Shown here one piece after another: positions 23,307 to 51,063 of a stretch of 64,000 bases of DNA (position 1 is its first letter; every line of letters begins with the position of its first letter). The stretch comes from Datisca glomerata (taxonomy: Eukaryota > Streptophyta > Magnoliopsida > Cucurbitales > Datiscaceae). The position numbers and the translations under genes were made by a program. The stretch is taken from assembly GCA_003255025.1 (NCBI GenBank), contig QANY01000230.1, forward strand, positions 1,581,374 through 1,645,373, in the 5' to 3' direction. The notes below the pieces were generated by a model that was not told the origin of the DNA, made no database searches, and worked only from the letters and a program-made list of their open reading frames with translations.

Positions 23307-23458
23307 AGCATGGGTAGAAATCTAATTTGGTTTGCTTTTATTTCTATTTTACCTAAAATTTCTTTAGAGCTTTGCTGATTGTTATTAATGGGAAGATCAA
23401 TAACAAGTTTGTCTACTGTAAAAGGAAAATCAGGTAAAGAAGTAGGTAATTGAGGTAA

Positions 23459-23705: not shown

Positions 23706-25489
23706 GACTAGACAATTATAAAGATAAGTTACCTGATAAGGACTCACTATGTGAGTTGGAATGATTTGAAGAGGAGCTTACTGATGCAGTATCCATAGAG
23801 GCTTGTACCAAGATGTTTTCTTGTGCTGGAAGCTGGAATTGTTTTGAAATGAAGTATGATGCAAGACTGATGTAAGTGTAGGTATTTTACTGACAGATTC
23901 AATATCAGAGGTTTTATTTTGATAGAACATAGTATTATAAGGAAAAATTGACTCATTGAATACCAAATTTTCATAAATGTATAACCTATCAGAGGAATGT
24001 AAACATTTATATCGTTTGTGTTCTAAAGAGTAGCCAAGAAATAAGCACAAATCTGATTGAAAATCTAGCTTATGAGTATTGTATGGCTTCAAATAAGGAA
24101 AGCATGCACATCCAAATGTTCTTAAGGTGTTATAGTCTGGCATTTCTTGATACAAAACTTGGTTTGGTGATTTAAAGTCAAGTGTAGATATGAGTAACCT
24201 GTTAATAAGATAGATCTTTGTTTGGAAATATTTCCACCAAAAATCTATATGCATGCTGGCTTGGGCTAAAAGGGCCATGCCTGTTTCAACAAGATGTCTA
24301 TGCTATCTCTCAATTTTTTTTGTTTTGATGATGTGTATGAGGACATTGGTGTCTAAATATGATCCCTTCAGACTGAAGATACTTGACAAAGGGTCTGAAC
24401 TCTCCTCCAAAGTCAGATTGAAACAGTTTTGATAGTACTTCAAACTTTTTTTCATTAAGGGTTTTGAATATATTAAAGGTGTTTAAGGTTTCAGACTTTA
24501 ATTTTAGAGGATACATCCAAATTTTTTTTTACTGAAATCATCAAGAAAGCATACATAATACCTATAACTCTCTTTTGAGAAAATTGGGGAAGGTCCCTAC
24601 ATATCTGTATGAATGATTTCCAAGGGTTTTGATGTTCTGGTGTGAGAAATCGGAAAGGTTAAGGTATAGTTCTTCTCTTTTTGACAGGCAATACAAAAAT
24701 GTGGTGCTTGTTTAACTATGAGAATGTTACTAGACTTTAACAACTTATGCAAAATAGTAGATGTAGGATGCCTTAACCTTTTATGCCATACCAGTTTGAT
24801 TAAGCAATTTTTCAGTAAAGATGCCCATTTTGTGCTTATCTTGTGTGAGAGTATTATTTTACTGATAAGAAGAAACAAGACAACATGGATCTGTAATCAG
24901 AAATGAGACTTTATTGCTTTCATCATTATTACAAATTGAGGAAACATTATAAGTAGAAACATCTTTACAGAGTCATTAACAGCAAACTGAGAGGTTTAAA
25001 GATATTCAAGCTAGAATTATGAAAAACATATTTACTAATGCATTACAAAAAGGCTTTTAACAGACTTTAGTATGACTTTATGGTTTACTTTGAATTCATT
25101 TAGCAAACAGATCAGATTTATCAATTCTAGTAATTGTCAACAAGTATATGCCATCTCTAAGGATCCCTTTCAGCAGTATGGTTCCCAGTTCCTTGTCCTT
25201 CACATAGCAAGCATTAACATGAAACTCAATATATATGTTATTGTCTTTAATCAGTTTAGAGATGCTAACTGAGTTATTTTAATGTCAGGAACTCTTAACA
25301 ACGGAATTAGCTATAAAGGTTGTTTAGAAAGGAATTTAGTAGGTACGAAAGCTGAACCTATATGAGTAATTGACAAGGTCTTACCATTCCCCCACTACTA
25401 GTCTCTCAGCTCCATTGTATTCTTGAGCCATGTTGAGATTGTTGAAGTCTACTGTCAAATGGTTAGTTGATGCACTGTCAACATACCAA
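23706..25489 (-). pseudogene. Copia protease/integrase region, broken
   Basis: Descending from the solo LTR: PTLAWYVDSASTNHLTVDF (25501-25440, bases at the LTR edge) marks the protease region with D-S-A in place of the usual catalytic D-[ST]-G. The integrase zinc-binding part has VWHKRLRHPTSTILHKLL and CIACQKEKNY (24800-24680). The integrase core has FQSDFGGEFRPFVKYLQSEG (about 24420-24360). A C-terminal part follows at 24278-23778 with LRTFGCACFPYLKPYN and KLDFQSDLCLFLGYS. Frame changes and stops separate these pieces. Confidence 0.88.
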
Positions 25490-29832: not shown

Positions 29833-31035
29833 GATAAGATAAAATAGTTTAGTTATCTCTGCAAGTGAAATCAAATTATTTCAATCTAAAATTAGATTTC
29901 TAGGATTTGAAATTTATCATTCTATAATTAAATCAATTGATCGAGTAATACAATTTGTTGACAAATTTCTTGATGAAATCCTTGACAAAACCCAATTACA
30001 AAGATTTCTAGAGTCCCTAAATTATATATATGATTTTTTTAATCAATTAAGAATTGATTGCAAGCCTCTCTTTGAAAGGCTTATGAAAAATCCTCCTCCT
30101 TGGACATCTGTCCACACCAATTTAATTAAGAGAATTAAAACTCATGTTAAGACACTTCATTGTTTTGTCATCCCCTCAAATAATTCTTTTAAGGTATCTT
30201 ATTACAGTACAACTTGTAAGCGTATTTGATGCCTCTGAAATTGGATATGGAGGTATCTTATTACAAAAAATTTCTCCAGATTCTCCAGAACAACTTGTTA
30301 GATTCACATCTGGAACCTGAACTCAATCATAAATAAATTACAGTACAATTAAAAAAGAAATCTCATTTGTTATATTCGGTATACGAAAATTTTAGAATGA
30401 CTTATTGAATAAAAAATTTCTCCTAAAAATTGACTGTAAATCTGCAAAGAACGTTTTGGAAAAAGATGTTAAAAATATTACTTCCAAACATATTTTTGCT
30501 CGATGGCAGTCCATTCTAAGTATTTTTTATTTTGATATTGAATTCAAGGCGTTAATAATTTGATCATTGACTTCCTTACAGTAAATTTTTGCGGGGAAGT
30601 CAAGATGTGGTCTAGGCCCAGGGTCTCACAGAATATAATCAATGGAGAGTCATATACTCCACAATTAGCCCTTAAAGCCCAAATTAAAGAGCAGTCTTCT
30701 ACTCTTAGATAAACTCAAATGACAATGCTTGGGTCCATCAGGCCCAACTATTAATCAGCCCTAATAAATTAATTTGACCCATTCTTAGTCTCCAAACGTT
30801 TTGATCCACAATTGGTCAATCAGCTAATCATAAAATAAAAAAATCATCCCCATATCTTAGAAAAATTTCGAGCAAAAATCTCTTTCATATTGAGTCTTTG
30901 TTTGCTCACTTGAAAAATCCAATTGAAATAGCGAAATCTCATTTCTTTCTAGATTTCCACTTTGTCCCTGATCACAATGACAAAAATCTTGAAAAGCGTT
31001 TTCGAAATTAATTAATCTGCATAAAAACTATTTTT
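29833..31035 (+). pseudogene. Endogenous pararetrovirus block 1: end of RT, RNase H and C-terminal segment
   Basis: Part of a Caulimoviridae-like polyprotein on the plus strand. It starts inside the reverse transcriptase thumb (KIKLFQS-like text near 29870) and continues through the connection/RNase H region (LQRFLESLNYIYD near 30000; KNVLEKDVKNITS and IFARWQSILSIF near 30450-30530). It ends in the post-RNase H segment shared with 44530-43240. Many stops and frame changes. The left edge is viral against host DNA near 29833, where homology to 45190-45119 begins. The right edge flips into an opposite-strand block. Confidence 0.8.
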
Positions 31036-32200
31036 TTGATTTTGATGTGATTAAGGATTTGGATGAAATTATCAATATCTTGATTGTTGACAATAGGTTC
31101 TTCAACCCCATTATCAGAAATTGAGGATTTTTAATTAAATTTTCTATTTTTAAGTGATTTAATTTTTTTATTATTTTTGTGTTTGATTATTTTAATTATT
31201 TTATTTCTTTTATTTCAATTTTAATATTTTTTATTTCTTTTTAAAGTTCTTGTAAAGTAACTTCTTTTTTTTTCCTTTAACTTTGTTGAATTTTTCAAGA
31301 GTTTGTGAAAAGCTTGTGGTAGTATTATTAGACTTAGAATTTTTTTTTTATTTTGAATTATTTTAATAAGTTTTTCAAGATATTCTTATTTTAATTCAGG
31401 ATTTCAATTTTACTAATTAAGTCTAACAAGAGATTTTCTTATTCTTCATTTTTATTTAAAATATTGATATTTTTCTGACAACTGCTATCTCTGCATCCCA
31501 TAGAGATGTTAGGAGAATCATTGTCAGAACTTGAAGAGTTTAATTCATCAGATTTAGAGGATTCAAATTCTTTTAAATTGTCATTACTAATTTCATACTA
31601 ATCTATTGATTCTATGATTCTAAACAATTCGTGTTTATCTTCATCAGAGATTTTTAATTGATTAACTTTATTTTTGACTTGACAAGTATTGGGAAAATGA
31701 CCATTCTGGCCACATTTAAAACACTTAATTTTACTTTTATCAACAAATTCTTCATTGAATTTTCTTTTTGAATAATTTTTATTTCTAGAATAGTATTTGT
31801 CAAAATTTTATTTTTCTGCTTGTGGTAGTTTTTTCCTATAAGATGATAAATTTTCCTATTTTTTGGGAAGGAGCAATAGCAGATAAACCATATTACTCAC
31901 CAAAATTGTCTAACTCATATTTGACAGTTTTTTCTTTTTTAATTTATTTATTAATTTTAATGTCTATGGCATTTTTAGACATTCTTTTTGTATTCTGGTG
32001 ATTATTGTACCATAGGTGGGACTATTATAGTCTATATTTCCTAGATCGTTGCTAAAGACTGATGTAATTTTGTGGGCAAACAAATTTTGTAGGTCATTGA
32101 TGAATTTTTCTTTCCAAAAGGGTTGATTACTATCATTCCAAGACATTACTTTAGACAAAAATATATTTTTGTACCAGTCAAATGAATGGTTCAATAATAG
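31036..32200 (-). pseudogene. Endogenous pararetrovirus block 2: coat protein region with zinc knuckle
   Basis: Descending from 32194: coat-protein core text (YKNIFLSKVMSWNDSNQPFW, then SNDLGNIDYNSPTYGTIIT) and a CCHC knuckle, CFKCGQNGHFPNTC, at about 31726-31683. An acidic/Ser-rich tail and a low-complexity linker follow, to about 31036. It lies head-on against block 1 and back-to-back with block 3, so both edges are inversion junctions. It is a fragment with several stops. Confidence 0.8.
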
Positions 32201-32429
32201 AAGAGTCTTCGACTCAACAATTGACCCTTAAGACCCAAATCAATTAGGAGTCTTTTACTTCTAACCAAGCTTAATTAACAATATTTGGGTCCATCAGACC
32301 CAATTACCAATCAACCATGGTCAATTAATTTGACCATTTCTCAATTACCAGACCTTTTAATACCCAATCATACCATCAGCCAATTGCAAATTACAAAAAA
32401 TCATCTCCTTATTTCAGAAAAATCCCTAG

Positions 32430-33534
32430 TAAAAATCTCTTTTATATTGAGCCATCATTCGCACATTTTAAAGATCCTACTAAGCCCATTTTCTCCCAGA
32501 ATTCCACTTTGTCCGTGGTCACAGAGACAAAAATCTCAATTTCTATAGGGACATTCTCTTAGAAACTAAATCCATTAATATTAGTCCAATAAAAAATACC
32601 GAAGGAAGAATACTCTATCATTCTTTCTATATTCTTAAAATCATAACCATGAACGAATGGAAAGACCATCCTTCAGTTCCCAAAATTCTTTTAAATAAAA
32701 GACAATATAATTATTTTGACTATATTGATGCTTGACACATGATTTTCCTGCATCAAAATAGTGATTTTTCTATTCATCGATTTTAAATTTTGACAAAAAT
32801 TTCAAAATTAATCTTCTCAATTAGTTCTTAAAATGGTGGTCTATCCACGATACTATCTTAGAAATATTTCCAATCAAATTTTAACAAAGTTTTAATTTAT
32901 TTATGAAAACACGCATTCCCTCTTCAATTGAGGTTTCTATGCCTCAATTACACTGCTTTAAAAATAAATACAAAATACCCTGGATTTTAAAGTGGCAATA
33001 CTCAATTGAAGATAAAATTCTTACCAGGCAGTATTATGTTAAATGGTAGGATAAATTTAATACCCAAAAAATTATTGCATCCATCAACCATGAATTTGCA
33101 ACTATCCATCCTAATGTGAGACTAACAAATCATTTTACCCAAGCTCCATTAAAAGTTAATCAACCTATTAACTTAGCTCCACAAATTAAATCATCCAGTT
33201 TAAATTCATCCAAATTCTGAATCCAAACCGAATTAAATCCTCTTCAAAGGGTAAATCAAATGCCACAAAGCCAAAGTCTAAATTGAAGAAGGAATTAATC
33301 CATAAAATGTTTCTCCTCCTAGAAGATAATAATGATTTTGAATCTAAATCATTAGTAGAGTCAAGTCACCCAATCAAACTCAATATCCAAAAAGGTCAAT
33401 CAACTAAAGCTTTCCCTCAGCAATTGAAGGATAAAAATAAATCACAAGGACGCGTCTTACCACAATGGGCTTATGATGCCTTCCAAGACTCACAAGACCC
33501 ATTCGATGACGTCAATCTCAGTGACGATGAATAG
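32430..33534 (+). pseudogene. Pararetrovirus polyprotein C-terminal module (non-AlkB type)
   Basis: Follows RNase H in this virus type. It reads in pieces through KNLNFYRDILLETKS near 32530, YNYFDYIDA near 32710, WWDKFNTQKIIASINHEF-like text near 33040-33100, and the final stretch ELIHKMFLLLEDNNDFES to the stop at 33532. Equivalent text occurs on the minus strand at 44200-43240. I do not recognise a domain of known function; the aromatic YNYxDY and WW residues are conserved between copies. Stops at several places make it a pseudogene. Confidence 0.6.
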
Positions 33535-33968
33535 AAAAAAATAATTCACCTTTGGCAAAATGCCAATGTTGAAATAATTAAGAAATCAAGAAGTTTGAAA
33601 AATAAATATCATAATGACTTTCCATCATAATGCAACGGTCATAAGGATCTTAAGACAAGCGATAATGACTTCTCCGAAATCAACAATCAAAGCACAAGAA
33701 TCCAAGATAGCAACTATCAAGGACTCCAACTTATAGCAATAGTCACAATGAATATTGAAAGACAACAATCATAACAGAGCAATATTGAAGACGCAAAGTC
33801 CAAGATTACAATTATCAAGGAATCTTTGTATTTTGTCAAATAATTAGGCAACTAATTATCCTTTTTACTGTTCTTAGTCAAAAATTATAATATAAAATGT
33901 TTTTACTTTACTAGAAAAAAATAGTGCAGGTAAGTTATGTGTTTCTGGTGAACTCCACTCTCCTTGCC

Positions 33969-33979
33969 TATAAATAGGC
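33969..33979 (+). promoter_or_regulatory. TATA box of the pararetrovirus promoter
   Basis: CTATAAATAGG, followed about 30-40 bp later by the conserved TTGTTCCTTAGAACTTG start region shared with the other copies. Confidence 0.8.
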
Positions 33980-34275
33980 TGCCTTCTCCCATTTGTTCCT
34001 TAGAACTTGTTTTCACTCTTAACGATTTTGAGAGAAAAACTTGTTTTAAGAACAAAGCAATCTTTCTTCCTCCTCTTTTGTAATCTCTTCTTATTTTTCT
34101 TCAACATTAATTAGTGACCACGAGTACTAATTAATCGTTGGCAATTAATTTTCCTCAATACTTGTAAGTTTTAAATCTTACTTAAAATAACAATTTTAAT
34201 GTTTATTGTTGTTTGAAATCTTTCTTCTAATACCCAGTCTTTAATTTCTTAAAATATACGTAATTCTGCCTCTTT

Positions 34276-34288
34276 TGGCATCAGAGCC
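34276..34288 (+). promoter_or_regulatory. tRNA-Met primer binding site of the pararetrovirus
   Basis: TGGCATCAGAGCC, one base different from the usual initiator-Met primer complement. It lies about 45 bp upstream of the first viral ATG (34335). This is the minus-strand DNA priming site expected for Caulimoviridae. Confidence 0.8.
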
Positions 34289-35489: not shown

Positions 35490-37400
35490 TTGGGAGGGTT
35501 TAACCCAACCACTCGTAATAGATGCAATAGGTTTAGAGAGACAAACAATATGGATCAAAGAAAAATCATCATTGCTGAATGGAAGATGTTCATGCAAGAA
35601 TTTAATATTGATATATTTTTCCTTGATTATATCGAGGATATTTATGAAAAGAATATTAAAGTAATTTCAAAGACTAAATGGGTCAAGGTAGACTCTAGTA
35701 TGGTGTCTGCTAGACATCCCCCACTTGAGAAAATTATAATTAATCATAAAAAAATTTTAATCACTGGTTCTCCTTTTCAAATTTCAAAGGAAGAAGAACC
35801 TTATAAAAGGTTGTTGAACTACTTAATTACACCAATCAAAGTTTAATAACAATAGGAAAATAATTAGACAAAATTAAAAATAAGGTTAATGATCTTCATG
35901 ATCCTAAATCTAATGAATCTCTGTAAGAAACTCCTTTAATAAATCTTTCAGATAAAACTACTTTGAATATTGTTCCCCTCAATAAAAGAATGATAAAATC
36001 CTTCAAAAATTGAAGAATAAATATATTTAATCATCTTCCTCAGTTAAGGTTATTAACTAAGACAGTATTTCTGAATAAAAAAGAAATAGTTCAGAATCCA
36101 CCAATGAATCATCCATAATTGATGAATCTTCAAGCATCCAGAATATTGAAGAAACATTTAAAAATTAACAAATTAACAAATTAGAAAGGATGTGACATAA
36201 AAAGCATATTCCTTCAAATATTCAAATTACAAAATCTTCTTTAGTTAACCAATTTTTTATTTCTACAGAAAAATTGTATGAATAGAATATCGATGGGCTT
36301 TCAAAATAGGAAGTCCTCAACAAATTACAACACATGACTATGGTAGCAAACAGTTACATTACCACACAATGAGGTAATCAAACTTTTAGTTTCAAGATTC
36401 ACAGGAATGCTTCATTCTTGGTGGAAAAACTATTTCACACAAGAATCCAAAAATACCATCATTTCAGCAGTAAAGATTGATGCTGAAAGTACCCCAATCC
36501 TTGGAGAGGATCATAAAATAATGCATGATGTCATTAATACCCTCTTCTACACCATAATGAACATTTCATTGGAATGCCAAATAATGTTACTTCGCGTATC
36601 CATGACCAAATTAATGAATCTTAGGTGCCTTAACCTAAATGATTTAGACTGGTACAAAAATATATTTTTCTAGAGAGTAATGTCAAGAGATGATAGTAAT
36701 CAACCCTTTACCCATTTTAAAAGATAAATTCATCAATGGCTTACCGAATTTATCCGTCACAAAATTAGAACAACCCTTAGTGATGATCTAGGAAATATAT
36801 ACCATAGTAGTCTCACCTACGATATAACTATCACCGCAATACAAAAAGAATGTCTAAAAATGTGCATAGACATTAAAATTAATAAAGAAATTAAAAAAGA
36901 AAAGAAAACTGCCAAATATGAATTAGACAATTTCTGCGAGCAATATGGTTTACCCGCTATTGCTCCTTCCCAAATAAATAGGAAAAAATTCTCATCTTAA
37001 TCCTAAAGGATTTACAAACCTGATAGGAAAAGATACCACAAATAGAAAAATAAAAATTTTGACAAATGCTTTTCTAGGAATAAAATTATTCAAAAAGAAA
37101 ATTCAAATAAATTGTATATGAAAGTAAAATTAAGTGTTTTAAATGTGGCAAGAATGGTCATTTTTCCAATACTTGTCAAGTCAAAAATAAAATTAATCAA
37201 TTAAAAATCTCTAATGAAGATAAATAAGAATTATTTAGAATCATAGAATCAATAGATTACGATGAAAGTAGTAATGAAGACTTAGAAGATTTTGAATCCT
37301 CTAAATCTGAAGAATTAAATTCTTCAAGCTTTAATACTGATTCTCCAAACATCTCTATGGGATGTAACGATAGTTGTTGTCAAAAAATATTAATGTTTTA
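35490..37400 (+). pseudogene. Pararetrovirus coat protein region with CCHC knuckle, broken
   Basis: An N-terminal part is open at 35490-35846 (RKIIIAEWKMFMQEF; ARHPPLEKIIINHKK). The coat core is at 36400-36980, with WWKNYFTQESKN, then GEDHKIMHDVINTLFY, DDLGNIYHSSLTYD and AKYELDNFCEQYGLPAIAPS. After a frame change a CCHC zinc knuckle of the form CFKCGKNGHFSNTC reads at 37137-37178, followed by an acidic, Ser-rich tail. The knuckle binds packaged RNA in this family. Three equivalent coat segments occur elsewhere in the cluster. Confidence 0.8.
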
Positions 37401-37519: not shown

Positions 37520-37926
37520 TAGGGGTGTTCAAAACCAACTTGAAGCGGCTGAATCGAATCGAACCAAAAATGGTATGTTTGGTCGGTTTTTTTATGTATG
37601 CTTGGTTCAGTTCAGAAAAATTGTCGAACCGAAGTTTCGGTTCAGTTCAGAATTTTGGTGGTTTTCGAACCGAACCGAACCGAAACTTTAATTTTATATT
37701 TTTTTTATTTTTTATATATAATTTCTTATAAAACCGAACTGAAGCAAAACTTTAGTTTTATATTTTTTTTCGATAATATCATTTATAAATTATTTTTAAT
37801 TAATAACACCAAACCGAATAACCGAACGGAAACGAAACAAAACTCACCGTTCGATTCTTTTAGTATTCACGGTTCGGATTGGTTTTTTGCCAAAAAACTG
37901 ATCAAACCCAACCGTGAACGCCCCTA
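37520..37926. mobile_element. hAT-type MITE inserted in the pararetrovirus
   Basis: A 407-bp element. The left terminus TAGGGGTGTTC and the right terminus GAACGCCCCTA are inverted copies with one mismatch. The flanks GAGAATAC (37512-37519) and GAGAAGAC (37927-37934) form an 8-bp target duplication with one difference. The interior is full of CGGTTCGG/CCGAACCG words and encodes nothing. The 8-bp duplication and TA(G)GGG ends place it with nonautonomous hAT elements. It interrupts the viral text between the coat tail and the protease. Confidence 0.92.
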
Positions 37927-38239
37927 GAGAAGACTAAGTCTAATAACAATACTGCAAGCCTTTCACAAACGCTTGAAAAATTCAAAATTAAATGAAAGGA
38001 AAAAGAAGTTTCTCTATAGGAACTTAAAAAAGAAATAGAAAATCTTAAAATTGAAATAAAAGAATTAAAAGAATCAAACACAGAAATAATAAAAGATTAC
38101 ATATTTTAAAAATAGAACCTAGTAGACTAGGAGAACCTAGTAAATCCCCAATTTATGATAATGAGGTTGAAGAACCTAATGTCAACAATCAAGATGATGA
38201 TAATTTCATCCAAATCCTAAATCACATCAAAATAAAAAA

Positions 38240-38620
38240 TGGCAACATAATGGTCAGAATAATAATTCAATATTTTGATTTCACTATAGTGGCTCTTATT
38301 GATTCAACAGCTGATTTGATTTGTATGCAGGAAGGACTCGTTCCTACCAAGTACTTCAAGTAGATAAAAGAATCTTTGTCCTCTGCCAATGGTACTAGAA
38401 CGCATATCAATTTTGAAATCTTTAAATTTCATATTTACCAAGACAATATATGTTTTAAAATATCGTTTGTCTTAGTAAAAAATATGACAGATAAAATCAT
38501 TTTGGGTTTATCATTCATTTCTCTATTGTATCTATTTATAACAGAGCATGATGGGATAATTACTTATCACATGGATAAACCTGTCAAATTTAAATTTCTT
38601 TCTTTTTTCTCACAATGAGA
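38240..38620 (+). pseudogene. Pararetrovirus aspartic protease, broken
   Basis: Polyprotein-processing protease. The active-site region reads LIDSTADLICMQEGLVP at about 38295-38345, with Thr in place of the Gly of the usual DSGA-type motif. A second part is open at 38376-38618 (KNMTDKIILGLSFISLLY). A TAG at about 38360 separates the two. The equivalent site in the minus-strand copy at 46260-46290 keeps D-S-G-A. Confidence 0.75.
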
Positions 38621-38699: not shown

Positions 38700-39330
38700 A
38701 CAAGACGATATAAAATTCAAAAGAATTGAAGAACAGCTTCAAAATCCTACTCTTTAAAAATAAATTAAAATCTTTGAATAAAGAATTTATTAAAATATAT
38801 GTTTTGACATTTCTAATACATTTTGCAAATCCAGGCAAATGAAATTGATATATACAAAATTACATTTGGTTGTTATAATTGGAATGTAATGCCATTTGCT
38901 TCAAGTAAATTTCAGAATATAATGAATGAAATCTTTAATTAATTTACTGATTTCTCGATTGCTTGCATTAGTAATATTCTTATTTTCTCTAAATATGTTA
39001 AACAATATTGGAAACAAGTTAGATTGTTTGTCAAGATAATAAAACAAAATTGTTTAGTTATCTTTGCAAGGAGAATCAAATTGTTTCGATCTAAGAAAAA
39101 ATTTCCAAGACTTGAAATTTATTATTTCATTATTAAGACAATTAATCAAATCATATAATTTGCATTATTAAATCAAGAATCTCTTTTAAAAACTTATTGT
39201 AAACCTGCAAAATATGTTTTGACATTGCTTATAAACAGAGTTTTGTCAGGTAACAGTCTATTTTTAGCATTTTTCCAATATTAAATTTATTCAAGATATT
39301 AATAATTCAATTCCTAACTTCTTCTCTCAT
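38700..39330 (+). pseudogene. Pararetrovirus reverse transcriptase, internally deleted
   Basis: Only the part around the palm survives: YKITFGCYNWNVMPF near 38855-38900, then FTDFSIACISNILIFSK (about 38943-38993). The catalytic Y-x-D-D is replaced by C-I-S-N. The fingers and most of RNase H are missing; a short tail near 39270-39330 leads straight into the AlkB-like segment. Nonfunctional. Confidence 0.78.
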
Positions 39331-39334
39331 GGAT

Positions 39335-39810
39335 TTATGCAGGAAATCATTTCAAAATTTCGCCATGGAAGAATTTGAGAATTCTGACCCACTAGAATAC
39401 GAAAAGGTAAAACCTAGAATACTCAACCAAAATTCTTTCAAAATTAAGAAACTCAATGGTAGGGCAGCCGCTTTTTGCTGAAAACTCTCATTCATTAAGT
39501 ATGGTCATAATGGATTTGAATATCAAAGAAATGCATGGATTAATGAATTGGATGATATTTTGAAAGATGTTGGGTTGAAGCATGACTTCAATGCAGCACT
39601 AATCAAATGGTATGAAAATGGTGAAAATATAGGTTTACACAAAGATAATGAAATTGGTTATGATGACAGAAAAATTTTAACTGTGAACTTATTAGGACAA
39701 ACAATTTTTAAAATTTAATTTTCAGATAAAACAATCAAAGAATTTTATACTGGAAGGAACTTTCTTTGTCATGCCTGACGGATTTCAAAAAGGTCATAGG
39801 CATTTTCTAT
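39335..39810 (+). pseudogene. AlkB-like Fe(II)/2-oxoglutarate dioxygenase segment in the viral polyprotein
   Basis: After the RNase H remnant the text enters FKIKKLNGRAAAFC, then YGHNGFEYQRNAWINELDD. FNAALIKWYENGENIGLHKD follows, with H at 39638 and D at 39644 giving the HxD iron pair, then ILTVNLLGQTIFKI (about 39675-39716). A frame change near 39762 leads to MPDGFQKGHRHF (39771-39805), where the HRH supplies the second iron histidine. This order is the AlkB/2OG-FeII_Oxy_2 fold pattern, closest in style to the AlkB domains of plant RNA viruses, which reverse nucleic-acid methylation. The final Arg that binds 2-oxoglutarate is lost here because the text jumps to the non-AlkB C-terminal module, but is present in the copy at 41915-42480. 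A TGA follows AAAFC. Confidence 0.72.
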
Positions 39811-40012
39811 ATGGACATTCTCTTAAAAACTAAATCCATTAATATTAGTGCAATAGAAAATACCGAAGGAAGATGAAGAAATGAAAAGACCATCTATCAG
39901 TTCGCAAAGTTATTTTAAATAAAAGGAAATATAATTATTTTGACTATATTGATTCTTGACACATGATATTCCTACATCAAAATAGTGATTTTTCACATTC
40001 ATGGATTTTAAA

Positions 40013-40745
40013 TTTTGACAAGATTCACCGGAATGCTTCATTCCTGGTGGGAAAAATATCTCACAGAATAATCCAAAAATATCATCCTTTCAACAGTAAA
40101 GATTGATGTTGAAGGAACCCCAACCTTTGGAGAGTATCAATAAACAATACATGATGCCAATAATACCCTCTTCTATTCCATAATTGAACATTTGATTGGA
40201 ACGCCAAGTAATGCTACTTCGTGTATCCATGACTAATTAACCAATCTTAGGTTCCCTACCCTAAGTGATTTTGACTGGTACAAAGATATATTTTTGTTCA
40301 GAGTAATGTTAAGTGATGATAGTAATCAACCATTTTAGAAAGAAAAATTCATCAACGGCTTACAAAATTTATTTGCCCAAAAAATTAGAACAATCCTTAG
40401 TGATGACCTAACAAATAGACTATAATAGTCTCACCTACGGTACAAAAATTACCATAATACAAAAAGAAGGTCTAAAAATGTGCATAGACATTAAAATTAA
40501 TAAACAAATTAAAAACAAAAAGAAAACTGTCAAATATGAATTAGGCAATTTCTGCGAGCAATATGGTTTATCCGTTATTGCACCTTCCCAAAAAATAAGA
40601 TAAATTCTCATCTTAATCCTAAAAGGATTTACAAACCTTATAGGAAAAAATACCACAAACTGAAAAATAACAATTGACAAATACTTTTCTAGCAATAAAA
40701 ATTATTCAAAAATAAAATTCAATAAAAAATTTGTTGATAAAAGTA
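40013..40745 (+). pseudogene. Endogenous pararetrovirus block 4: second coat protein fragment
   Basis: The text jumps from the C-terminal piece straight back into coat protein (RFTGMLHSWWEKYL from about 40020). It continues through DWYKDIFLFRVM, EKFINGLQNLFAQKI and, after frame changes, the AKYE-type region near 40540, ending before the zinc knuckle. Its right edge, near 40745, abuts an opposite-strand leader, a convergent inversion junction. Confidence 0.8.
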
Positions 40746-40779
40746 AAATTATCAAACAACAATAAACAGTAAAATTGTT

Positions 40780-41459: not shown

Positions 41460-41914
41460 ATTCATCGCTGAGTTTAATCTCATCAAACGGATCCTGAGAG
41501 TCTTAAAATGGGTCATAAGCCCATTGTGATAAGAAGCAACCCTCTAGTTTATTTTTACCCTTCAATTGCTGACAGGTAGCTTTTCCAGATGATTGAGTTT
41601 TTTGGATATTTGGTGTAACTAAGTGACTTGACTCTATTGGTAACTCAGAGTTAGGGTTGTTATCATCTTCTAGAAGGAAAAGCATTTTTTGGATTAATTC
41701 TTGCTTCAATTTTTATTTTTTGATTTTATTGTCTTGGACTTTCCTTTTGAAGAAGGTTTTGACTCGGGTCTGGATTCTTTGGATGATTTTGAACTGGATG
41801 ATTTGGTTTGTAGATTTTAATTTATAGGCTCATTAATTTTTAATATGGCTTGAGGGAAAGACTTTGTCAATTTTAACTGAGGATGGACAATTGTGAACTC
41901 ATGGTGAATGGAGG
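41460..41914 (-). pseudogene. Polyprotein C-terminal tail after the AlkB-like segment
   Basis: Links the AlkB-like segment to the common polyprotein end. It reads IHHEFTIVHPQLKLTKSF, a Ser/Lys-rich basic stretch (SSKSSKESRPESKPSSKG), then ELIQKMLFLLEDDNN and PQWAYDPF-type text to a stop near 41461. The same end is found after the non-AlkB module in other copies, so only the middle module differs. Confidence 0.65.
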
Positions 41915-42480
41915 CAGTAATTACACGATTTCTGAAAGAAATGCTGATTCTTTTAATTAAGGATTCCACAACATGCCTATGATTTTTTTTAAATCCGTCA
42001 GGCATGACGAAGAAAGTTCCTTCTAGTATAAATTTTTTTTTGATTATTTAATTTCAATTTTAAAAATTGCTTGTCCTAATAGGTTCACAGTTAAAAAATT
42101 TCTATCATCATAACATATTTCATTGTCTTTGCGAAAACATATCTTTCTACCTTTTACATACAATTGGATGAGTGTTGCATTGAAATCATGCTTCAACCCA
42201 ACATCTTCCAAAATTTTATCCTATTCATTAATCCATGCGTTTCTTAGATATTCAAATCCATTATGACCATAATTAGTGAATGAGAATTTTGAGCAAAAAG
42301 AGGTTGCCCTGCCATTGAGTTTCTTGATTTTAAAACAATTTTGGTTGAGTATTCTAGGGTTGACCTTTCCGTATTTTAGCATGCCAGAGTTCTCAAATTC
42401 CTCCATGGTGGAATTTTGAAATGATTTCCTGCATAAATTCATGAGCAAGGAAGTCATGAATTTAATTATTAATGTCTTGA
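41915..42480 (-). pseudogene. AlkB-like dioxygenase segment, second copy
   Basis: Descending on the minus strand: FKIKKLNGRATSFCSKFSF, YGHNGFEYLRNAWINE (stop at about 42221), then FRKDNEICYDDR with Arg in place of the first iron histidine. FLTVNLLGQAIFKI follows, a frame change, then MPDGFKKNHRHVVES and LIKRISISFRNRV (42005-41920). The last part retains the distal His and the Arg-x-S-x-S-F-R signature that binds 2-oxoglutarate, both absent from the plus-strand copy's end. Together the two copies cover every motif of the family; each alone is broken. Confidence 0.72.
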
Positions 42481-43239
42481 ATAAATTAAATATTGAAATA
42501 AAAAATATTAAAAATAGATTGTTACTTGGAAAAACTTTGTTTGGATACAATGTCAAAACATGTTTTGCAGATTTGTAATTAAATTTTAAAAGAAATTTTT
42601 TATTTAATATATTATCTTGAAATTTATTATTAAACTATATGATTCGATTAATCATTTTAATAATTGAATGATAGATTTCAAATCTTAGAAATCTAACGCT
42701 AGATTGAAACAATCTGATTTTCCCTGCAGAGACAATTAAAATATTTTATTTTACTATCTTGGAAAAAATTAAAATGTTCCCAGTATTGTTTAATAAATTT
42801 AGAGAAAATAAGAATATCTCTAATGCAAACAATCGAGAAATTAGTGAATTGGTTGAAAATTATTTTATGAAACTTACTTGGAGCATTAAATGGCATTACA
42901 TTCCATTTAATGACCAAATGTAATTTTGCACTTATCAATTTCTTTTACCTCGAAAAATCAAAATTTTATGTCAAATTTAGAGAATACATCAAAAATTCCA
43001 ATTTGCTTTTTACGAGTAGGATCTTCAATTCTTTTGAATTTTATTTTATCTTATAAAAAAGTATAATTTTATTTCTTTACAAGAAAATAAATTTATAGTT
43101 TTAAAAATAGAATTTTGTTTTAAAGTATTCAATTTTCCATTGTGAGAAAAAGAAACAAATTTGAATTTGACAGGATTATTCTTGGGATAAGTAATTATCA
43201 CATCATACTCTGTTGTAAATGGATCAAAAATTTCAATTT

Positions 43240-44530
43240 TTGAGGGAAAGTCTTGGATGATTGTCCTTTTTGATTTTTTATTTTAATTGGATGATTTGAC
43301 ACTACTAATGATTCAGAGTCAGAATCAATATTGTCTTCAAGGAGAAGAAGCATTTTTTTTGCATTAACTCCTGCTTTAATTTGGAGTTTGATTTGGTGGC
43401 CTTCGGGTTTTCCCTTTGGAGAGGGTTTTTATTTAGGCCTAGATTCTTTGGATGAACTCAATGATTTAGTTTGTGGGACTGATTGTGGAATTAGTTTGAC
43501 GGGCTCATTAATTTTTAATCGAGCCATAGGAGAAGGATTGGCCAATTCTAATTGTGGATGGATATTTACAAATTCATTGTTTATGGAGACGAGAGATTTT
43601 TAGGGTATTGAATTTATTCCAACATTTAACATAGTATTTTCTGGTGAAAATTTTTTCTTCAATTGAATACGGTCATTTTAAGATCCATGGAATTTTATAT
43701 TTATTTATAAATAAAGTAAATGTGGAAAAAACCTCAACTGGTGAGGGTTTGAACAATTTTAGAAATAAATTAAATTTTGTTGAAGTTCAATTGGAAATAA
43801 TTCTACCACATGTCCATGGATTGACCACCATCTTAAAAACTATTTTGGAAAATTAACTTTAAAATTTTTATCAAAATTCAAGAACTAGGAGTGAGAAAAT
43901 TCATTATTTTGATATAAGAAAATCATTTGTCAGGCATCAATATAGTAAAAATAATTATATTATTTTTTATTTAAAAAGGTGTTTAGAACTGAAGTATGTA
44001 TTTCTCATTCCTCCATGGTTATGATTTTGAGAATGTAGAATGAATGATAGAGGAACTTTCCTTCTGCACTATTTATTGGACTGATATTAACTGGTTTTGT
44101 TTCTAAGAGAATATCCAAACTAAGATTTTTGTCCTTGTGACCATCGACAAAGTGAAAATTTGGAAGGAAATGAGATTTTACTATTTCAATTGGATTTTTC
44201 AAGTAAGCAAATAAGGGCTCAATATAAAAGATATTTTTTCTAGGCGTTTTTCTAAAATATAGGGATGATTTTTTGTATTTTATGATGGTTGATTGACCAA
44301 TTGTAGGTCAAAATGTTTGGAGACTGAGAATGGGTCAAATTGGTTGACCATGACTGATTGGTAATTGGGCCTGATGAACCTAAGTCTTGTCATTTGGGTT
44401 TGTCTAGGAGTAGAAGACTCATCTTTAATTTGAGCCTTAAGGGCCAAATGTGGAGTACAAGACTCTCTTTTGATTATATTCTTTGAAGCATGGGGTCTAG
44501 ACCCCATCTTGACGTCCCTAAAAAAATTCA
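43240..44530 (-). pseudogene. Polyprotein C-terminal module (non-AlkB type), minus copy
   Basis: Directly follows RNase H: open at 44531-44280 (RDVKMGSRPHASKN; LALKAQIKDESSTPRQ) and at 44202-44005 (KSHFLPNFHFVDGHKDKNLS; NSAEGKFLYHSFYILK). Broken YNYFYYIDA, FSHS and WWSIHG pieces follow, down to MLLLLEDNIDSDSES near 43330. Colinear with 30590-31020 and 32205-33534. No known domain is recognised. It occupies the place that the AlkB-like segment has in blocks 3 and 5. Confidence 0.6.
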
Positions 44531-45714
44531 CGAGTAAGGAAGCCAGGAATCAAATTATTAATGCCTTGAATGAATTCAATATCAGAATAAAAAATACTAA
44601 GAATGGATTGCCATCGAGCAAAAATTTGTTTGGAAGTAATATTTTTAACATCTTTTTCCAAAACAAGCTTTGCATATTTACAGTCAATTTTTAAGAGAAA
44701 TTTTTTATTCAACAAGTCATCCTGAAATTTTTGTATACACAATAAAACAGATTAGATTTCTTTTTTTATCTGAAGAATCTCGAGAAATTTTTTGTAATAA
44801 GCTACCTCCATATCCAACTTCAAAGGTATCAGTCTTGACAGTCTTAAAAGAATTATTAGAGGGGATGCCAAGACAAGAAAGTGTCTTAACATAGATTTTA
44901 ATTCTCTAAATTAAATTGGTGTGGACAGATATCCAGGGGAGGATTTTTCGTAAGCCTTTCAAAGAGAGGCTTGCAATCAATTCTTAATTTATTATAAAAA
45001 TCATATATGTAATTTAGGGACTCTAGAAATCTTTGTAATTGGGTTTTATCGAGGATTTCATCAGGAAATTTATTAGCAAATTGTATTACTCGATCAATTG
45101 GTTTAATTATGGAATGATAAATTCAAATCCTAGAAATCTGATTTTAGATTGAAACAATTTGATTTTACTTGCAGAGATAACTAAACCATTTTGTTTTATT
45201 ATCCTAGCAAATAATTCAAGGTGTTTCCAATGATGTTCTACTAATCTAGAAAAGATGAGAACATCATCAATGTAAACAATTAAAAAATCAGTAAATATAT
45301 TAAAGATCTCATTCATTATATTTTGGAATTCATTTGGAGCATTTTAAGACCAAAGGACATTACATTCCACTCATAATGGCCAAATGGAGTTACAAATGCA
45401 GTTTTGTAGTTGTCATTTTCATTTATCTGAATTTTTCAAAACTCGGGCATCATGTCAAACTTAGAGAATATAACAACATCTCCAAGTCTATTGATTAAGT
45501 CATTTTTATTTGGTATTAGATATCCTATCCATTCCAAAATATTGTTAATGGGCTTGTAATTAATAACTAATTGAAGAACTCCTCGTTCAATTTCACTGAT
45601 CTTTTGGACATAAAACGTCGAGCAAGACCAAGGAGATTTGCTACTTCTAATAATATTTTTATTGAGAAGTTCTATAATTTCCTTCTCACAGAACTTAAGC
45701 ATTTCAGAGTTCAT
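44530..45714 (-). pseudogene. Pararetrovirus reverse transcriptase and RNase H, best-preserved copy
   Basis: The fingers/palm part (45714-45436) contains SPWSCSTFYVQK and LGDVVIFSKFDM. The catalytic site VYIDDVLIFS is intact at 45316-45107 and is followed by KIKLFQSKIRFLGFEF. RNase H text includes VLEKDVKNITSKQIFARWQS and GFLTREFF (44742-44520). Stops near 45400 and through 45100-44750 split the gene, so no full enzyme can be made, although the YIDD box survives. Confidence 0.85.
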
Positions 45715-45869
45715 ATGAATCGGCTTTGCCTTTGTTGGGATATTATTTTCATCAAATCCCTTAATGTAAGGCAGATTGGCAGTATGGTGCTTCCTGTGCC
45801 GGAAAGAATTGAGAATGTCAGCAACAATTCTTTACAAATTCTTTGTTCAAAGATTTTAAATTGTTTTTG

Positions 45870-46360
45870 AAGAGCAGTATTTTGAAGTTGTTCTTTAATT
45901 CTTTTCATCTTGTAGAAAATATAATTTTTTTTACAAGAAATTAAATTTATGGACTTATAAATAGATTTTTGTTTTAAAGTTTTCAATTTCTCATTTCGAG
46001 AAAAAGAAAGAAGTTTGAATTTGACAAGTTTATTCATGAGATAAGTAAAAGGATACAACAGAGAAATGAATGGTAAACCTGAAATAATTTTATCTCTCAT
46101 ATTTTTTACCAAGACAAATGATATTTTAAAACATACATTGTCTTAGAAAATATGAACTTTGAGGATTTCATAATTGATATGCATTCGATCACCATTGGCA
46201 GAGCACAAAGATTCTCTTGTCTTCTAGAAATACTTGGTAGTAACGAGTCCTTCTTGCATACAATTCAAATCAGCTCCTGAATCAATCAGAGTCGTTGAAA
46301 TGAAATCATAATCTTGAATTATTATTCTGACAATTATGTGCCATTTTTTTATATTGATGT
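45870..46360 (-). pseudogene. Pararetrovirus protease, minus copy
   Basis: The active site reads TLIDSGADLNCMQEGLV (about 46295-46240) with the catalytic D-S-G-A intact. The second part is open at 46112-45711 (KNMRDKIISGLPFISLLY). A stop and a deletion separate them. Confidence 0.78.
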
Positions 46361-46699
46361 GATTTAGGATTTGGATGAAGTTATCATCATCTTGATTATT
46401 GACAATAGGTTATTTAACCTCATTATCAGGAATTGGGGATTCACTAGGTTCTCCTAGTTCACTAGATTCGTGGTTTTTAATTAAATTCTCTATTTTTAAA
46501 AAATTAATTCTTTTATTATTTCTGTGTTTGATGCTTTTAATTCTTTTATTTCAGTTTTTATATTTTTAATTTCCTTTTGAAGTTCCTGAAAAGTAACTTC
46601 TTTTTTCTTTCCTTTAACTCAGTTGAATTTTTCAAGAGTTTGTGAAAAGCTTGTGATTTTATTATGAAACTTAGTATTTTATTTCTTTTGAATTACCTT

Positions 46700-47297
46700 A
46701 GTTAAAAAACTTTTCCTGTTTGTGGTATTTTTCCTATAAGGTTTTTAAACTTTTCTAGGATATAGATGAGAATTTTTCCTATTCTTTAGGAAGGATATAG
46801 ATGAAAATTGCTCGCAGAAATTACCTAATTCTTATTTACAGTTTTCTTTTCTTTTTAATTTGTTTGTTAATTTTCATGTCTATACAAATTTTTAGACATT
46901 CCTTTTTTATTGTAATGATAATTGTACCGTAGGTGAGACTATTATAGTCTATATTTCCTAGGTCATCACTAAGGATTGTTTTAATTTGTCGGCAAACAAA
47001 GGTAAGCCATTGATGAATTATCATCCCTTATTACTCTGGACAAAAAAATATATTTTTGTACCAGTTAAAATCACTTAGGGATGGACACCTAAGATTGGTT
47101 AATTGATCATGGATATACAAAGTAACATTACTTGACATTCCAATTAAATGTTTAATTATTGTGTAGAAGAGGGTATTAATGGCATCATGCATTGCTTTCT
47201 GACCCTCTCTAATAATTGAGATTCCTTCAGTATCAATCTTTACTGCTGAAAGAATGGTATTTTTAGATTCTTCCGTGACATAATTTTCTCACCAGGA
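46700..47297 (-). pseudogene. Duplicated coat protein fragment inside block 6
   Basis: Descending from 47297 the text returns to the coat core (KNTILSAVKIDTEG; DAINTLFYTIIKHLIGM; DDLGNIDYNSLTYGTIIIT at 47024-46836) although a coat region already ended above it. The knuckle is missing here. The duplicated text meets the linker at 46690-46360, which continues to the protease. A copy-number change by recombination or concatemer insertion explains it. Confidence 0.7.
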
Positions 47298-47879
47298 ATG
47301 ATTGTTGACAATAGGTTCTTCAACCTCATTATCAGGAATTGGGGATTCACTAGGTTCTCCTAGTTCACTAGATTCGTTATTTTTAATTAAATTCTCTATT
47401 TTTAAAAGATTTAATTCTTTTGTTATTTTTGTGTTTGATTCCTTTAATTCTTTTATTTCAATTGTGATATTTTTAATTTCTTTTTGAAGTTCCTATAAAA
47501 TAACTTCTTTTTCCTTTCTATTAACTCTGTTGAATTTTTCAAGAGTTTGTGAAAGGCTTGCGATATTATTATGAGAGTTAGTATTTTCTTTATTTTAAAT
47601 TACCTTCCTAAGTTTTTCAAGGTATTCTTGTTTTAATTCTGAATTTTTAATTTTGCTAATTAAATCTAACAAGAGATTTTCTTATTTTTCATTTTTATTT
47701 ACAACATTGATATTTTTTCTGACAACAACTGTCCATGCACCACATAGAGAAGTTAGGAGAATCAATGTCGGAACTTAAAGAGTTTGATTCGTCAGATTCA
47801 GGAGATTCAAATTCTCCTAAATCTTTATTACCACTTTCATAGTATTCTATTAATTCTATAATTCTAGACAATTATTATT

Positions 47880-49700
47880 TATTTTCGTCAGAGATTTTTA
47901 ATTGATTAATTTTATTTTTAACTTGACAAATGTTGAAAAAATGACCATTCTGGTTACATTTAAAACACTTATTCTTTTGGAAAAATATTTTATTTTTAAT
48001 TTTTATTCTTAGGAAAATATTTGACAAAATTTATTTTTCTGTTTGTGGTATTTCTTCCTATAAGGTTTTTAAACTCTCTTAGGACTTAGATGATAATTTT
48101 TTTCTATTCTTTTGGAAATGAGCAATAGTGGGTAAACCATATTGCTCGCAGAAATTACCTAATTCATATTTGACAGTTTTCTTTTCTTTTTTAATTTGTT
48201 TGTTAATTTTCATGTCTATACACATTTTTAGACCTTCTTTTGTATTGTAGTATTAATTGTACCGTAGTTGAGACTATTATAGTCTATATTTTCTAGGTCA
48301 TCACTAATGACTATTCTAATTTTGTGGGCAATCAAATTAGGTAAGCTATTGATGAATTTTTCTTTTCAAAAGGGTTGATTACAATCATCCCTTAACATTA
48401 CTCTGGACAAAAAATATATTTTTGTGACAGTCAAAATCACTTAGGGTTAAACACATAAGATTGGTTAATTGATCATGAATACGCGAAGTAACATTACTTG
48501 GCGTTCCAATGAAATGTTCAATTCTTGTGTAGAAGAGGGTGTTAATGGCATCATGCATTATTTTCTGATCCTCTCCAATAATTGGGATTCCTTCAACATC
48601 AATCTTTACTGCTGAAATGATGGTATTTTTAGATTCTTGTGTGAGATATTTTTTCCAGCATGAATGAAACATTCATGTGAATCTTGTGACGAAAAGTTTG
48701 ATTACCTCATTGTGAGGCAAATTATGTGTGGTAATGTAATTGTTGGCTACCATAGTCATGTGTTGTAATTTTTTGAGGACTTCATGTTCTGAAAGCCCAT
48801 CAACATTTCATTCATATAATTTTTCTGCAGAAACAGAAAATTGGTTAACTAAAGAAGATTCAGTAATTTGAATATATGGAGGAATAGGCTTTTTATGCCA
48901 CTTCCTTTTTTTTCTAATTTTTTAATTTCTAAAATTTTAAACATTTCTTCAATATTGTGGATGCTTAAAGATTTAAGAATTGTGGATGATTCATAGGTGG
49001 ATTTTGACCTATGACTTTATGATTTAGAACAACTGTCTTGGTTAATAACTTTAATAGAGGAAGATTATTTAACAGATTCATTCTTCAATTCTTGAAGCAT
49101 TTTATCAATCTTTTTATTGAGGGGAACAATATCCAAAGTATTTTTATCTTAAAAATTTATTAAGAGTTTCTTTCATAGATTCATTAGATTTAGGATCATG
49201 AAGATCATCAACCTTATTTTCAATTTTGTCTAATTATTTTCCTATTATTATTAAACTTTTATTGGTGTAATTAAGTTGTTCAACAATATTTTTATTGGGT
49301 TCTTCTTCCTTTGAAAACTTAAAAGGAGAAGCAATGATTAAAGAATTTTTATGATTAATTGTAATTTTCTCAGGTGGGGGATGGCTAGCAGAAACCACAC
49401 TGGAGTCTTCCTTGACTCATTTGGTCTTTGAAATTACTTTAATATTCTTTTCATAAATATCCTCGATATAATCAAGGAAAAACATATCTACTTTAAATTT
49501 TTACATGAACGCCTTCCATTCAGCAAGAATGAATTTTCTTTGATCCATATTATATGTCTCACTGAACCTATTACGACTATTGAGATTGGTTGGGTCATTC
49601 ATATGTTAGGTTAAACCCTCCCAATCAGGCTCGTATTATTGGCTTAGGGTGCCTAAATTTAAAATTAAAAGTTGAAGATTAACAAGAGGTAAGGTTTCTT
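47880..49700 (-). pseudogene. Pararetrovirus coat protein region, minus copy
   Basis: Contains RKFILAEWKAFM-type text near 49540, the coat core open at 48672-48385 (KYLTQESKNTIISAVKIDV; IGTPSNVTSRIHDQLTNL) and a knuckle reading CFKCNQNGHFFNIC at about 47969-47928. In the knuckle the glycine before the central segment is replaced by Asn. Several stops. Confidence 0.78.
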
Positions 49701-49789
49701 GGAAATATGATTCAGTGGGTGTTTCAACTTTGTCAGATTGTTCAGTCTTATTATCAAAGATTGACTTACAGACTTGATAATTTATGGCT

Positions 49790-50803
49790 ATGCCTTTCAG
49801 TCTTAAATTTTTTATTTTTTAATCCTTGTTCTAACTCATGAATCCTAAGATCTTGATCATTATTAACAGATGATCCAGAAAATGAATTTCTAGGAGTACT
49901 AGACTAGCTAAACTCCTTAATTTGAGGATTAGAAATGGAAGATGGTTGAAGATTAATTTTAACAGTATCATCCATACACTGCTGGTTCTGATCAATATCT
50001 TCATTTGGGTGTTGAACTGGAGTGAGTTGGCTTTCATTGGTTAAAAGTTAATTTATAGGCAAAGTAATATCAGACCATCTAATGGTTTTAGGAACTCTAA
50101 TATTAACATTACTTTGGCTAGATTGAATCAACAAGGTTTGACTTTTTGGACTTCTATTGATGGCTTGGAAATTCATATTGGTTATGGTTACTTTGTAATG
50201 TATTCTGAAAATCAAAGATAGGGGTTGGGCACCTTCTATGATTTGGTAACCACTAGTTTCAATATTTAAAGTTGAAGATTTAAGAATATGGGGTCTATTA
50301 GACTAAGAGACAAATCTGACAAACAATCAAAATGCATTGGCCCATTTCAAAGTGATGATTCAATTAATCATAAATACTATTAATTAAAATTTATAAATAT
50401 TGCATCTCGCAAGGCTAATAGGGCAAAGGTATTTAGAACTCTTATTGTGAGTGGTTTAACTCCAATATGGACACACCAAAGTGAAGAAAATTATATCAAA
50501 GTGAAGAAATTATATCCTTCTTCAATGTGAAGTTTAATTGGATTGTGGGGAAGTAATTGATAAGTTTCATGCTCTTTCCCAAGGGCATATATTTTTTTCA
50601 ATTATTTTTACATGATGCTGAGGTTTGACAGACCATGTTGATTTATAAATTTTTTTACTAGGAATTTTGGGTATATTCCATACCCTATGATCTACATGAT
50701 CATTTGCTAAGTATTCAAAATATTCTTCATTAATTATGTCTGGTATTGTATTTATTGTAGACATATTGCTACTAGAAGAATTATTTCGAAATAATCTACT
50801 CAT
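49790..50803 (-). pseudogene. Pararetrovirus movement-protein-like region, minus copy
   Basis: Starts MSRLFRNNSSSSNMSTI at 50803 and is open to about 50567 (EEYFEYLANDHVDHRVWNIP). After a frame change it continues to text near 50190-49830 matching 34900-35245 (RSPKSQTLLIQSSQSN). Identified as the movement protein only by genome order, as for the plus copy. Confidence 0.5.
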
Positions 50804-50832
50804 TGCTCAAAATAACTAAATTATTCTTATGA

Positions 50833-51063
50833 TTAAAAATTACATAATGTATTTTGATATTCAAACCTGCTATGACTTCCACAACCTCTTATGAAGTCGA
50901 CTCTTCTCCCATTTGTCTCTACAACTACCTTACCCTCGGGATTTACGTATCTAAGAGGTCTTATTGGGGTGCTTGAAGCAAACCAAATAGAAACTAATAC
51001 GTTAGATTCACAGATTTGAAAATCAATGATTACAGAGAAATAATCAAGCATAAAAATAACCAT
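50833..51063 (-). other. Extra leader open reading frame between primer site and first viral gene
   Basis: In block 3 the primer site lies about 50 bp upstream of the first viral ATG. Here about 400 bp intervene, holding an open stretch of 76 codons with PIRPLRYVNPEGKVVVE and a basic end. I do not recognise the protein. It could be an inserted host or viral fragment, or a leader lost from block 3. It ends 30 bp before the next ATG. Confidence 0.4.

What the first reader, a model, noticed from the sequence alone, without database searches (positions are those of the whole stretch)
39335..39810. AlkB-like dioxygenase domain inside an endogenous pararetrovirus polyprotein
Seen: after the RNase H remnant, the plus strand carries an ordered set of AlkB motifs: FNAALIKWYENGE, an HxD pair (39638 and 39644), ILTVNLLGQTIFKI and GFQKGHRH. 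Known: AlkB (2OG-FeII_Oxy_2) domains occur in plant RNA viruses such as the flexivirus group, where they act on methylated nucleic acid. I know of no Caulimoviridae member described with one, though I cannot rule it out. Inference: this virus lineage gained the domain from a plant RNA virus or from a host ALKBH gene, fused after RNase H.
Basis: partly seen in the sequence, partly recalled or inferred. Interest (0 to 1): 0.87.

Follow-up and report, generated by a model that had tools for sequence, protein, structure and literature searches.

The report
RNA-demethylase-like domain in plant pararetrovirus fossils
Viral fossils in this plant genome carry an AlkB-type demethylase-like domain, joined in one reading frame to the polyprotein of a plant DNA virus that copies itself through RNA, a combination I found in no paper searched.

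Summary
The AlkB domain is real. The window's own copy is decayed, but its open 78-aa piece matches PF13532 (E 5e-6), and a second, inverted copy lies at 41922-42406(-). The plant genome holding the window gave 150 scored matches, the window copy included. Of 86 distinct copies examined, 28 keep an uninterrupted 161-aa domain. The best-kept pass Pfam's cut-off (up to 41 bits against 31.2), and the HxD...H...RxxxxxR residues are present in 26-28 of 28. In 16 of 20 loci picked for long frames, one natural open frame runs from the RNase H remnant through AlkB; in 7 it continues into the next viral domain. Order: capsid, protease, truncated reverse transcriptase (RT), RNase H C-terminus, AlkB, ORF2-like domain, tail. 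No RT active-site motif or RNase H N-terminus was detected in these 20. That is the layout published for "component B" of bipartite florendoviruses, with AlkB inserted at the RNase H/ORF2 boundary. The host ALKBH-like exons compared are dissimilar. Origin from a plant RNA virus could not be tested. Activity, substrate and dependence on an RT-bearing partner are inferred. In ten full-text searches I saw no report of AlkB in Caulimoviridae; the nearest precedent is an AlkB ORF in orchid Ty3/gypsy elements.

The parts
39365..39809 (+). AlkB domain, copy P (broken): ATG to GFQKGHRH; HxD at 39638-39646; stops at 39479 and 39716
39482..39718 (+). open 78-aa piece of the AlkB domain, PF13532 5.2e-6
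41922..42406 (-). AlkB domain, copy M2 (broken): stop at 42223, first ligand His replaced by Arg, third His and RxxxxxR kept
39159..39337 (+). RNase H C-terminal remnant of copy P; N-terminal part deleted
38820..39158 (+). RT remnant of copy P; fingers region deleted, YIDD replaced by CISN
38055..38618 (+). aspartic protease region of copy P (RVP E 0.033)
36347..36673 (+). capsid region, DUF7746 9.4e-9
35490..35846 (+). DUF7588 piece of copy P (8.7e-5, 22.7 bits, cut-off 27)
34276..34287 (+). tRNA-Met primer-binding-site-like TGGCATCAGAGC, 1 mismatch (5 matches in window, 2.7 expected by chance)
39801..40021 (+). ORF2-like (X) sequence to which copy P's AlkB is abruptly joined
41588..41921 (-). 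tail shared with the ORF2 of AlkB-less copies, after AlkB in M2 (X absent)
43046..43224 (-). protease end opening copy M2
42441..42962 (-). RT and RNase H remnants of copy M2 (CIRD for YIDD)
43232..50844 (-). copy M1, AlkB-less type: capsid, protease, RT (RVT_1 7e-16, YIDD), RNase H, ORF2 X and tail; decayed
29834..34229 (+). copy S, AlkB-less type: RT/RNase H, then ORF2 X, tail, intergenic region (interrupted by an inverted piece)

Best explanation
The segment is a decayed copy of an AlkB-type 2-oxoglutarate/Fe(II) dioxygenase domain that an endogenous caulimovirid carried in its polyprotein between the RNase H C-terminus and the ORF2-like domain. The AlkB-bearing form has capsid and protease but a dead, truncated RT, so it most likely replicated as a second genome component (like florendovirus component B), served in trans by an RT-bearing component without AlkB. 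The domain most likely removed methyl groups such as m6A from viral RNA and so blunted a plant methylation defence. Shown: the domain, the in-frame fusion, conserved catalytic residues, loss of RT in the loci examined, many copies, dN/dS below 1 among open copies. Inferred: demethylase activity, RNA substrate, trans-replication.
For: PF13532 over its cut-off in natural frames (4 of 7 frames over 31.2 bits; 20 of 20 domains match at E 0.01 or better, the first and best 41.3 bits). Profile match to 11 phage AlkBs 97.9%, 6e-13. Catalytic residues among 28 uninterrupted domains: H 28, D 27, H 26, R 27, R 26. Natural frame from RNase H remnant through AlkB in 16 of 20 loci, into X in 7. RNase H N-terminus and YxDD in 0 of 20. 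Pairwise dN/dS median 0.34 over 378 pairs. AlkB lies just before ORF2, whose N-terminus follows it (34 of 62 identical to M1 ORF2). Window copies share RT/RNase H lesions but no stop inside AlkB. Component B layout: PMC4241990.
Against: No activity data. The dN/dS set was chosen for open frames; the shared-versus-singleton test was not significant (p 0.13), nor was codon position for the two window copies (p 0.17). Both window copies change frame before the C-terminal part, though by different amounts. RT-bearing partners outside the window were not counted, as that search did not complete. The 20 loci were picked for long frames. The primer-site match is within chance. No movement protein was detected by Pfam in the pieces scanned.
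Confidence: 0.72

Rival explanations
1. The AlkB-bearing family is a non-autonomous retroelement: after one capture into an integrated copy it was multiplied in the germline by RT from elsewhere, and never was a packaged virus component.
For: 150 scored matches of 2283 candidates; no YxDD in the 20 loci examined; copies cluster with AlkB-less ones (L041).
Against: 16 of 20 loci keep capsid and protease with AlkB, X and tail; dN/dS is below 1 among open AlkB copies; the layout equals published bipartite florendovirus components.
Confidence: 0.2
2. The domain was taken from a host ALKBH gene, as in orchid Ty3/gypsy elements.
For: Precedent in PMC9289625; host ALKBH-like exons exist in this genome.
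Against: The viral profile scores the exons on C760, C888 and C906 at 7.2 bits or less, and each gene is matched in two separate pieces, as intron-split exons would be; viral domains share MPxGFQxxHxH with phage AlkBs, while those exons and human ALKBH2/3 lack it. Two further matches, on C385 and C366, were not classed, and ALKBH5/9/10-type genes were not compared.
Confidence: 0.12
3. A separate later insertion, for example an endogenised flexivirus fragment lying next to the viral fossil.
For: RNA-virus fragments do occur in plant genomes (PMC3136472 passages).
Against: Same place and same frame relation in 16 of 20 loci, with viral sequence on both sides.
Confidence: 0.02
4. Chance resemblance in AT-rich DNA.
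For: The window hit alone is below Pfam's cut-off.
Against: Genome-wide relatives over the cut-off with conserved ligands.
Confidence: 0.005

Closest known systems
Florendovirus bipartite genomes, component B (Geering et al. 2014, PMC4241990)
   Same: Polyprotein with capsid and protease, RT and RNase H N-terminus missing, C-terminal extension homologous to ORF2; compound insertions with the other type.
   Different: An AlkB domain of about 161 aa sits between the RNase H remnant and the ORF2-like part; the word AlkB does not occur in that paper's main text. A movement protein, present in component B, was not detected here.
AlkB ORF in Phalaenopsis Ty3/gypsy elements (PMC9289625)
   Same: A reverse-transcribing plant element with an added AlkB domain.
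   Different: There it is a separate ORF in an LTR retrotransposon of about 25 kb, ALKBH5-like, with shown m6A demethylase activity; here it is fused in a caulimovirid polyprotein and unlike the host exons compared.
AlkB of plant RNA viruses (Alphaflexiviridae, Betaflexiviridae, Closteroviridae, some Potyviridae; PMC9289625, PMC544882, PMC9452765, passages)
   Same: AlkB domain embedded in a viral polyprotein.
Phage AlkB proteins (11 IMG/VR loci)
   Same: HxD, MPxGFQxxHxH and R-x5-R end; hhalign 6e-13.
   Different: Stand-alone phage proteins; longer spacing between the third His and the first Arg.

Membership tests
AlkB (2OG-FeII_Oxy_2, PF13532) | Profile score over the curated cut-off | tested here: met
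   41.3 bits against 31.2 for the first of 20 domains, all 20 matching at E 0.01 or better; 4 of 7 natural frames over the cut-off; the window piece alone 27.3 bits, below
AlkB (2OG-FeII_Oxy_2, PF13532) | HxD, H and RxxxxxR | tested here: met
   26-28 of 28 uninterrupted copies at each residue; each window copy lacks a part of the set
AlkB (2OG-FeII_Oxy_2, PF13532) | Oxidative demethylation of nucleic acid | not testable with these tools
   needs an assay
Caulimoviridae (endogenous) | Caulimovirid RT | tested here: met
   AlkB-less copy M1: best solved match 8r0s 'Enzymatic polyprotein' 2e-14, ahead of 4ol8 (6e-11) and Ty3 7q5b (2.5e-10); no tree built
Caulimoviridae (endogenous) | tRNA-Met primer site | tested here: inconclusive
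   1-mismatch sites at 34276 and 51211, but 5 matches against 2.7 expected
Caulimoviridae (endogenous) | Movement protein domain | tested here: inconclusive
   no Pfam match in the upstream pieces scanned
Florendovirus component B | RT and RNase H N-terminus missing, capsid and protease kept | tested here: met
   0 of 20 with RNase H N-terminus or YxDD; 16 of 20 with CP, AP, AlkB, X, tail
Florendovirus component B | C-terminal extension homologous to ORF2 of the other component | tested here: met
   34 of 62 identical to M1 ORF2 N-terminus; X and tail matches
Florendovirus component B | Near-identical intergenic region in both components | tested here: inconclusive
   78.6% over 1197 nt between decayed copies M2 and S; M2 and M1 80.7-80.8% in two shorter pieces
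Florendovirus component B | Movement protein in the polyprotein | tested here: inconclusive
   not detected by Pfam in the window pieces scanned; not searched in the other loci
Florendovirus genus | RT falls in the florendovirus clade | not tested
   no reference RT set at hand

The most novel reading that the evidence does not exclude
A divided-genome plant pararetrovirus, with DNA genome and RNA intermediate, used an RT-less component to carry an AlkB RNA demethylase, fused into its polyprotein and taken from another virus rather than from its host, as a counter to RNA methylation.
Probability: 0.45. Interest if true: 0.9.

Novelty: new variant of a known kind. Interest (0 to 1): 0.8.

Why it matters
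AlkB domains in plant viruses were known to me only from positive-strand RNA viruses; a 2025 review table lists them only there (PMC12846519, passages). A fused AlkB in a reverse-transcribing DNA virus would show that RNA methylation pressed on pararetroviruses too. It also gives a possible reason for keeping an RT-less second component: it carries an accessory enzyme.

Tried and rejected
First reading dropped: from the two window copies alone I thought that AlkB had replaced the ORF2-like domain X. The genome-wide loci show that AlkB precedes X and that each window copy has lost sequence there.

AlkB as a separate ORF2 with its own ATG (good context in both window copies) was weighed. Natural frames elsewhere join it to the RNase H remnant, so I prefer fusion; an internal start is not excluded.

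Relatives elsewhere: IMG/VR scans with AlkB, RT, X and the 20-member alignment found none. Protein searches with two AlkB pieces found none; these were limited to proteins of about 43-240 aa, so long polyproteins could not appear. The database does hold plants.

PDB searches with the window pieces and with A3 gave no AlkB, while the phage profile A2 found ALKBH2/3 and AlkB. AlphaFold on the 78-aa window piece had mean pLDDT 48.9; no fold search was run on it. hhalign of A2 with the M2 C-terminal piece (1.1e-7) is partly circular, since A2 was collected with that motif; so, in its C-terminal part, is the A3 match. The P middle piece alone gave 0.015 at 2.9% probability; two other window pieces, the RT piece and the RNase H/AlkB N-terminal piece, gave 0.45 and 0.62, so the N-terminal half is not recognised.

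Full report
What is in the window. The window is plant DNA (30% GC) from a 678-Mb assembly; a bHLH130-like gene at 9174-9908(-) has its best named hits in rosids (two unnamed metagenome proteins score higher; the rosid label is recalled). Between about 29.8 and 51.8 kb lies a cluster of decayed caulimovirid copies in both orientations. Piecewise Pfam scans give DUF7588 (8.7e-5), DUF7746 (9.4e-9), a zinc knuckle (8.8e-4), a weak protease match (0.033), RVT_1 (7.4e-16) and weak RNase H matches (0.012). The RT piece's best solved relative is 8r0s, 'Enzymatic polyprotein' (2e-14), ahead of 4ol8 (6e-11) and Ty3 7q5b (2.5e-10); that 8r0s is the cauliflower mosaic virus RT is my recall. No movement protein was detected in the pieces scanned.

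The AlkB observation. The open 78-aa piece matches PF13532 at 5.2e-6, below the curated cut-off. A DNA pattern written from the two C-terminal ends found 2 places in the window, with none in 100 shuffles. In IMG/VR it found 16 stretches, of which 11 encode AlkB-like proteins by eye (two of the 11 are nearly identical); all 11 match PF13532.

The two window copies. Compared with the AlkB-less copies M1 and S, P and M2 share deletions of the RT fingers and of the region up to the RNase H N-terminus, a 16-nt deletion, loss of YIDD, and a stop at one place (S does not reach the fingers and YIDD). Site patterns join P with M2 (25, against 2 and 1 for the alternatives). Inside AlkB, by contrast, none of their three stops is shared; both change frame before the C-terminal part, by different amounts. 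Between the two copies AlkB differs less than the RT/RNase H remnant (50 of 381 against 88 of 458 untrimmed; Fisher 0.02-0.06 depending on trimming) and has no indel against seven (0.018). Codon-position bias is not significant (p 0.17), and dN/dS is 0.54-0.58.

Genome-wide. One answered search gave 150 scored matches of 2283 candidates, the window's copy P among them. I read 88 loci; two overlap others, leaving 86 distinct copies. Twenty were chosen for long frames and the rest taken in rank order, so fractions are not unbiased; 62 of the 150 places were not read in this count. 28 of 86 have an uninterrupted domain (at least 95% of 161 aa in one match without a stop); ligand residues are H 28, D 27, H 26, R 27 and R 26 of 28. 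Pairwise dN/dS has median 0.34 over 378 pairs (10-90% range 0.22-0.60); the nonsynonymous share of singleton against shared variants does not differ significantly (p 0.13). Among the 28, nearest neighbours are at most 97.9% identical, so none of these pairs is a very recent duplication.

Layout. In the 20 long-frame loci (two of them wider cuts of places already held), 16 have capsid and protease upstream and X and tail downstream of AlkB on one strand. 16 have one natural open frame from the RNase H C-terminal remnant through AlkB, and 7 go on into X. None has a match to the RNase H N-terminus on that strand; 6 have an RT palm match, none of them with a YxDD-like motif. One locus has a 902-aa natural frame with protease end, RT/RNase H remnant, AlkB (from residue 342), X and tail. 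After AlkB the sequence resumes with the N-terminus of the ORF2 found in AlkB-less M1 (34 of 62 identical). AlkB is therefore best read as an insertion at the RNase H/ORF2 boundary. In the window, M2 has lost X and P has lost the end of AlkB and the start of X.

What it works like. Geering et al. (PMC4241990, abstract and passages) describe florendovirus component B: movement, capsid and protease domains kept, RT and RNase H N-terminus missing, C-terminal extension homologous to ORF2, and compound insertions with component A. The AlkB copies match this except that a movement protein was not detected; the florendovirus RT clade itself was not tested. AlkB activity, RNA as substrate and help from an RT-bearing partner are inference.

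Source of the domain. A PF13532 search of the genome gave 129 matches (150 scored of 427 candidates), a mixture of viral and host places; 30 of them became loci. The viral profile scores the host ALKBH-like exons on C760, C888 and C906 at most 7.2 bits. The phage AlkB profile scores viral domains among those loci up to 48 bits, and two exons of C906 at 37 and 35. So the domain is not a recent copy of those host genes; phage AlkBs are about as close to the host C906 gene as to the viral domain. Matches on C385 and C366 were not classed. ALKBH5/9/10-type genes and plant RNA-virus AlkBs were not compared. That flexiviral AlkBs share MPxGFQ-like ends is my recall, not a result.

Literature. In ten full-text searches I saw no report of AlkB in Caulimoviridae; most listed papers I saw only as titles and abstract starts. 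Eight papers hold both words. I read the abstract, passages and two sections of PMC9289625, and passages of the other seven: PMC2714080, PMC12846519, PMC10752949, PMC11281624, PMC10194119, PMC6123372 and PMC7874184; none of these passages reports the combination. PMC13308828 was seen as outline and passages (it is not among the eight), PMC10377300, PMC544882, PMC9452765 and PMC3136472 as passages. PMC9289625 searched LTR-retrotransposon consensuses from 121 angiosperm genomes, set down 423 further consensuses as Caulimoviridae, and reports the 2-ODD domain only in Phalaenopsis gypsy elements.

Noticed in passing
window 4238-5020 (+), ORFs to 5752: DUF659 protein (1.7e-41), probably a hAT-type transposase (recalled).
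   Followed up: partly
window 22781-24302 (-), perhaps to 27631: Ty1/copia-type retrotransposon pieces (type recalled): RVT_2 2.8e-28 and SH3_retrovirus 3.3e-19.
   Followed up: partly
window 37522-37925 (+): About 400 nt in copy P between capsid and protease with no counterpart in M1; no Pfam match for the one ORF scanned.
   Followed up: no
window 31347-32182, 36393-37132, 40019-40751, 46711-47301, 47987-48687: The capsid segment is present about five times in both orientations; two lie close together in M1.
   Followed up: no
L041 15-797 (-) beside AlkB copy at 3250-3759 (+): A piece with RT palm (78%) and RNase H N-terminus on the other strand from an AlkB copy, like a compound insertion of two components.
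   Followed up: no
G000 C760, C888, C906: Host ALKBH-like exons; C906 resembles ALKBH2 and the other two another ALKBH class (class names recalled).
   Followed up: partly
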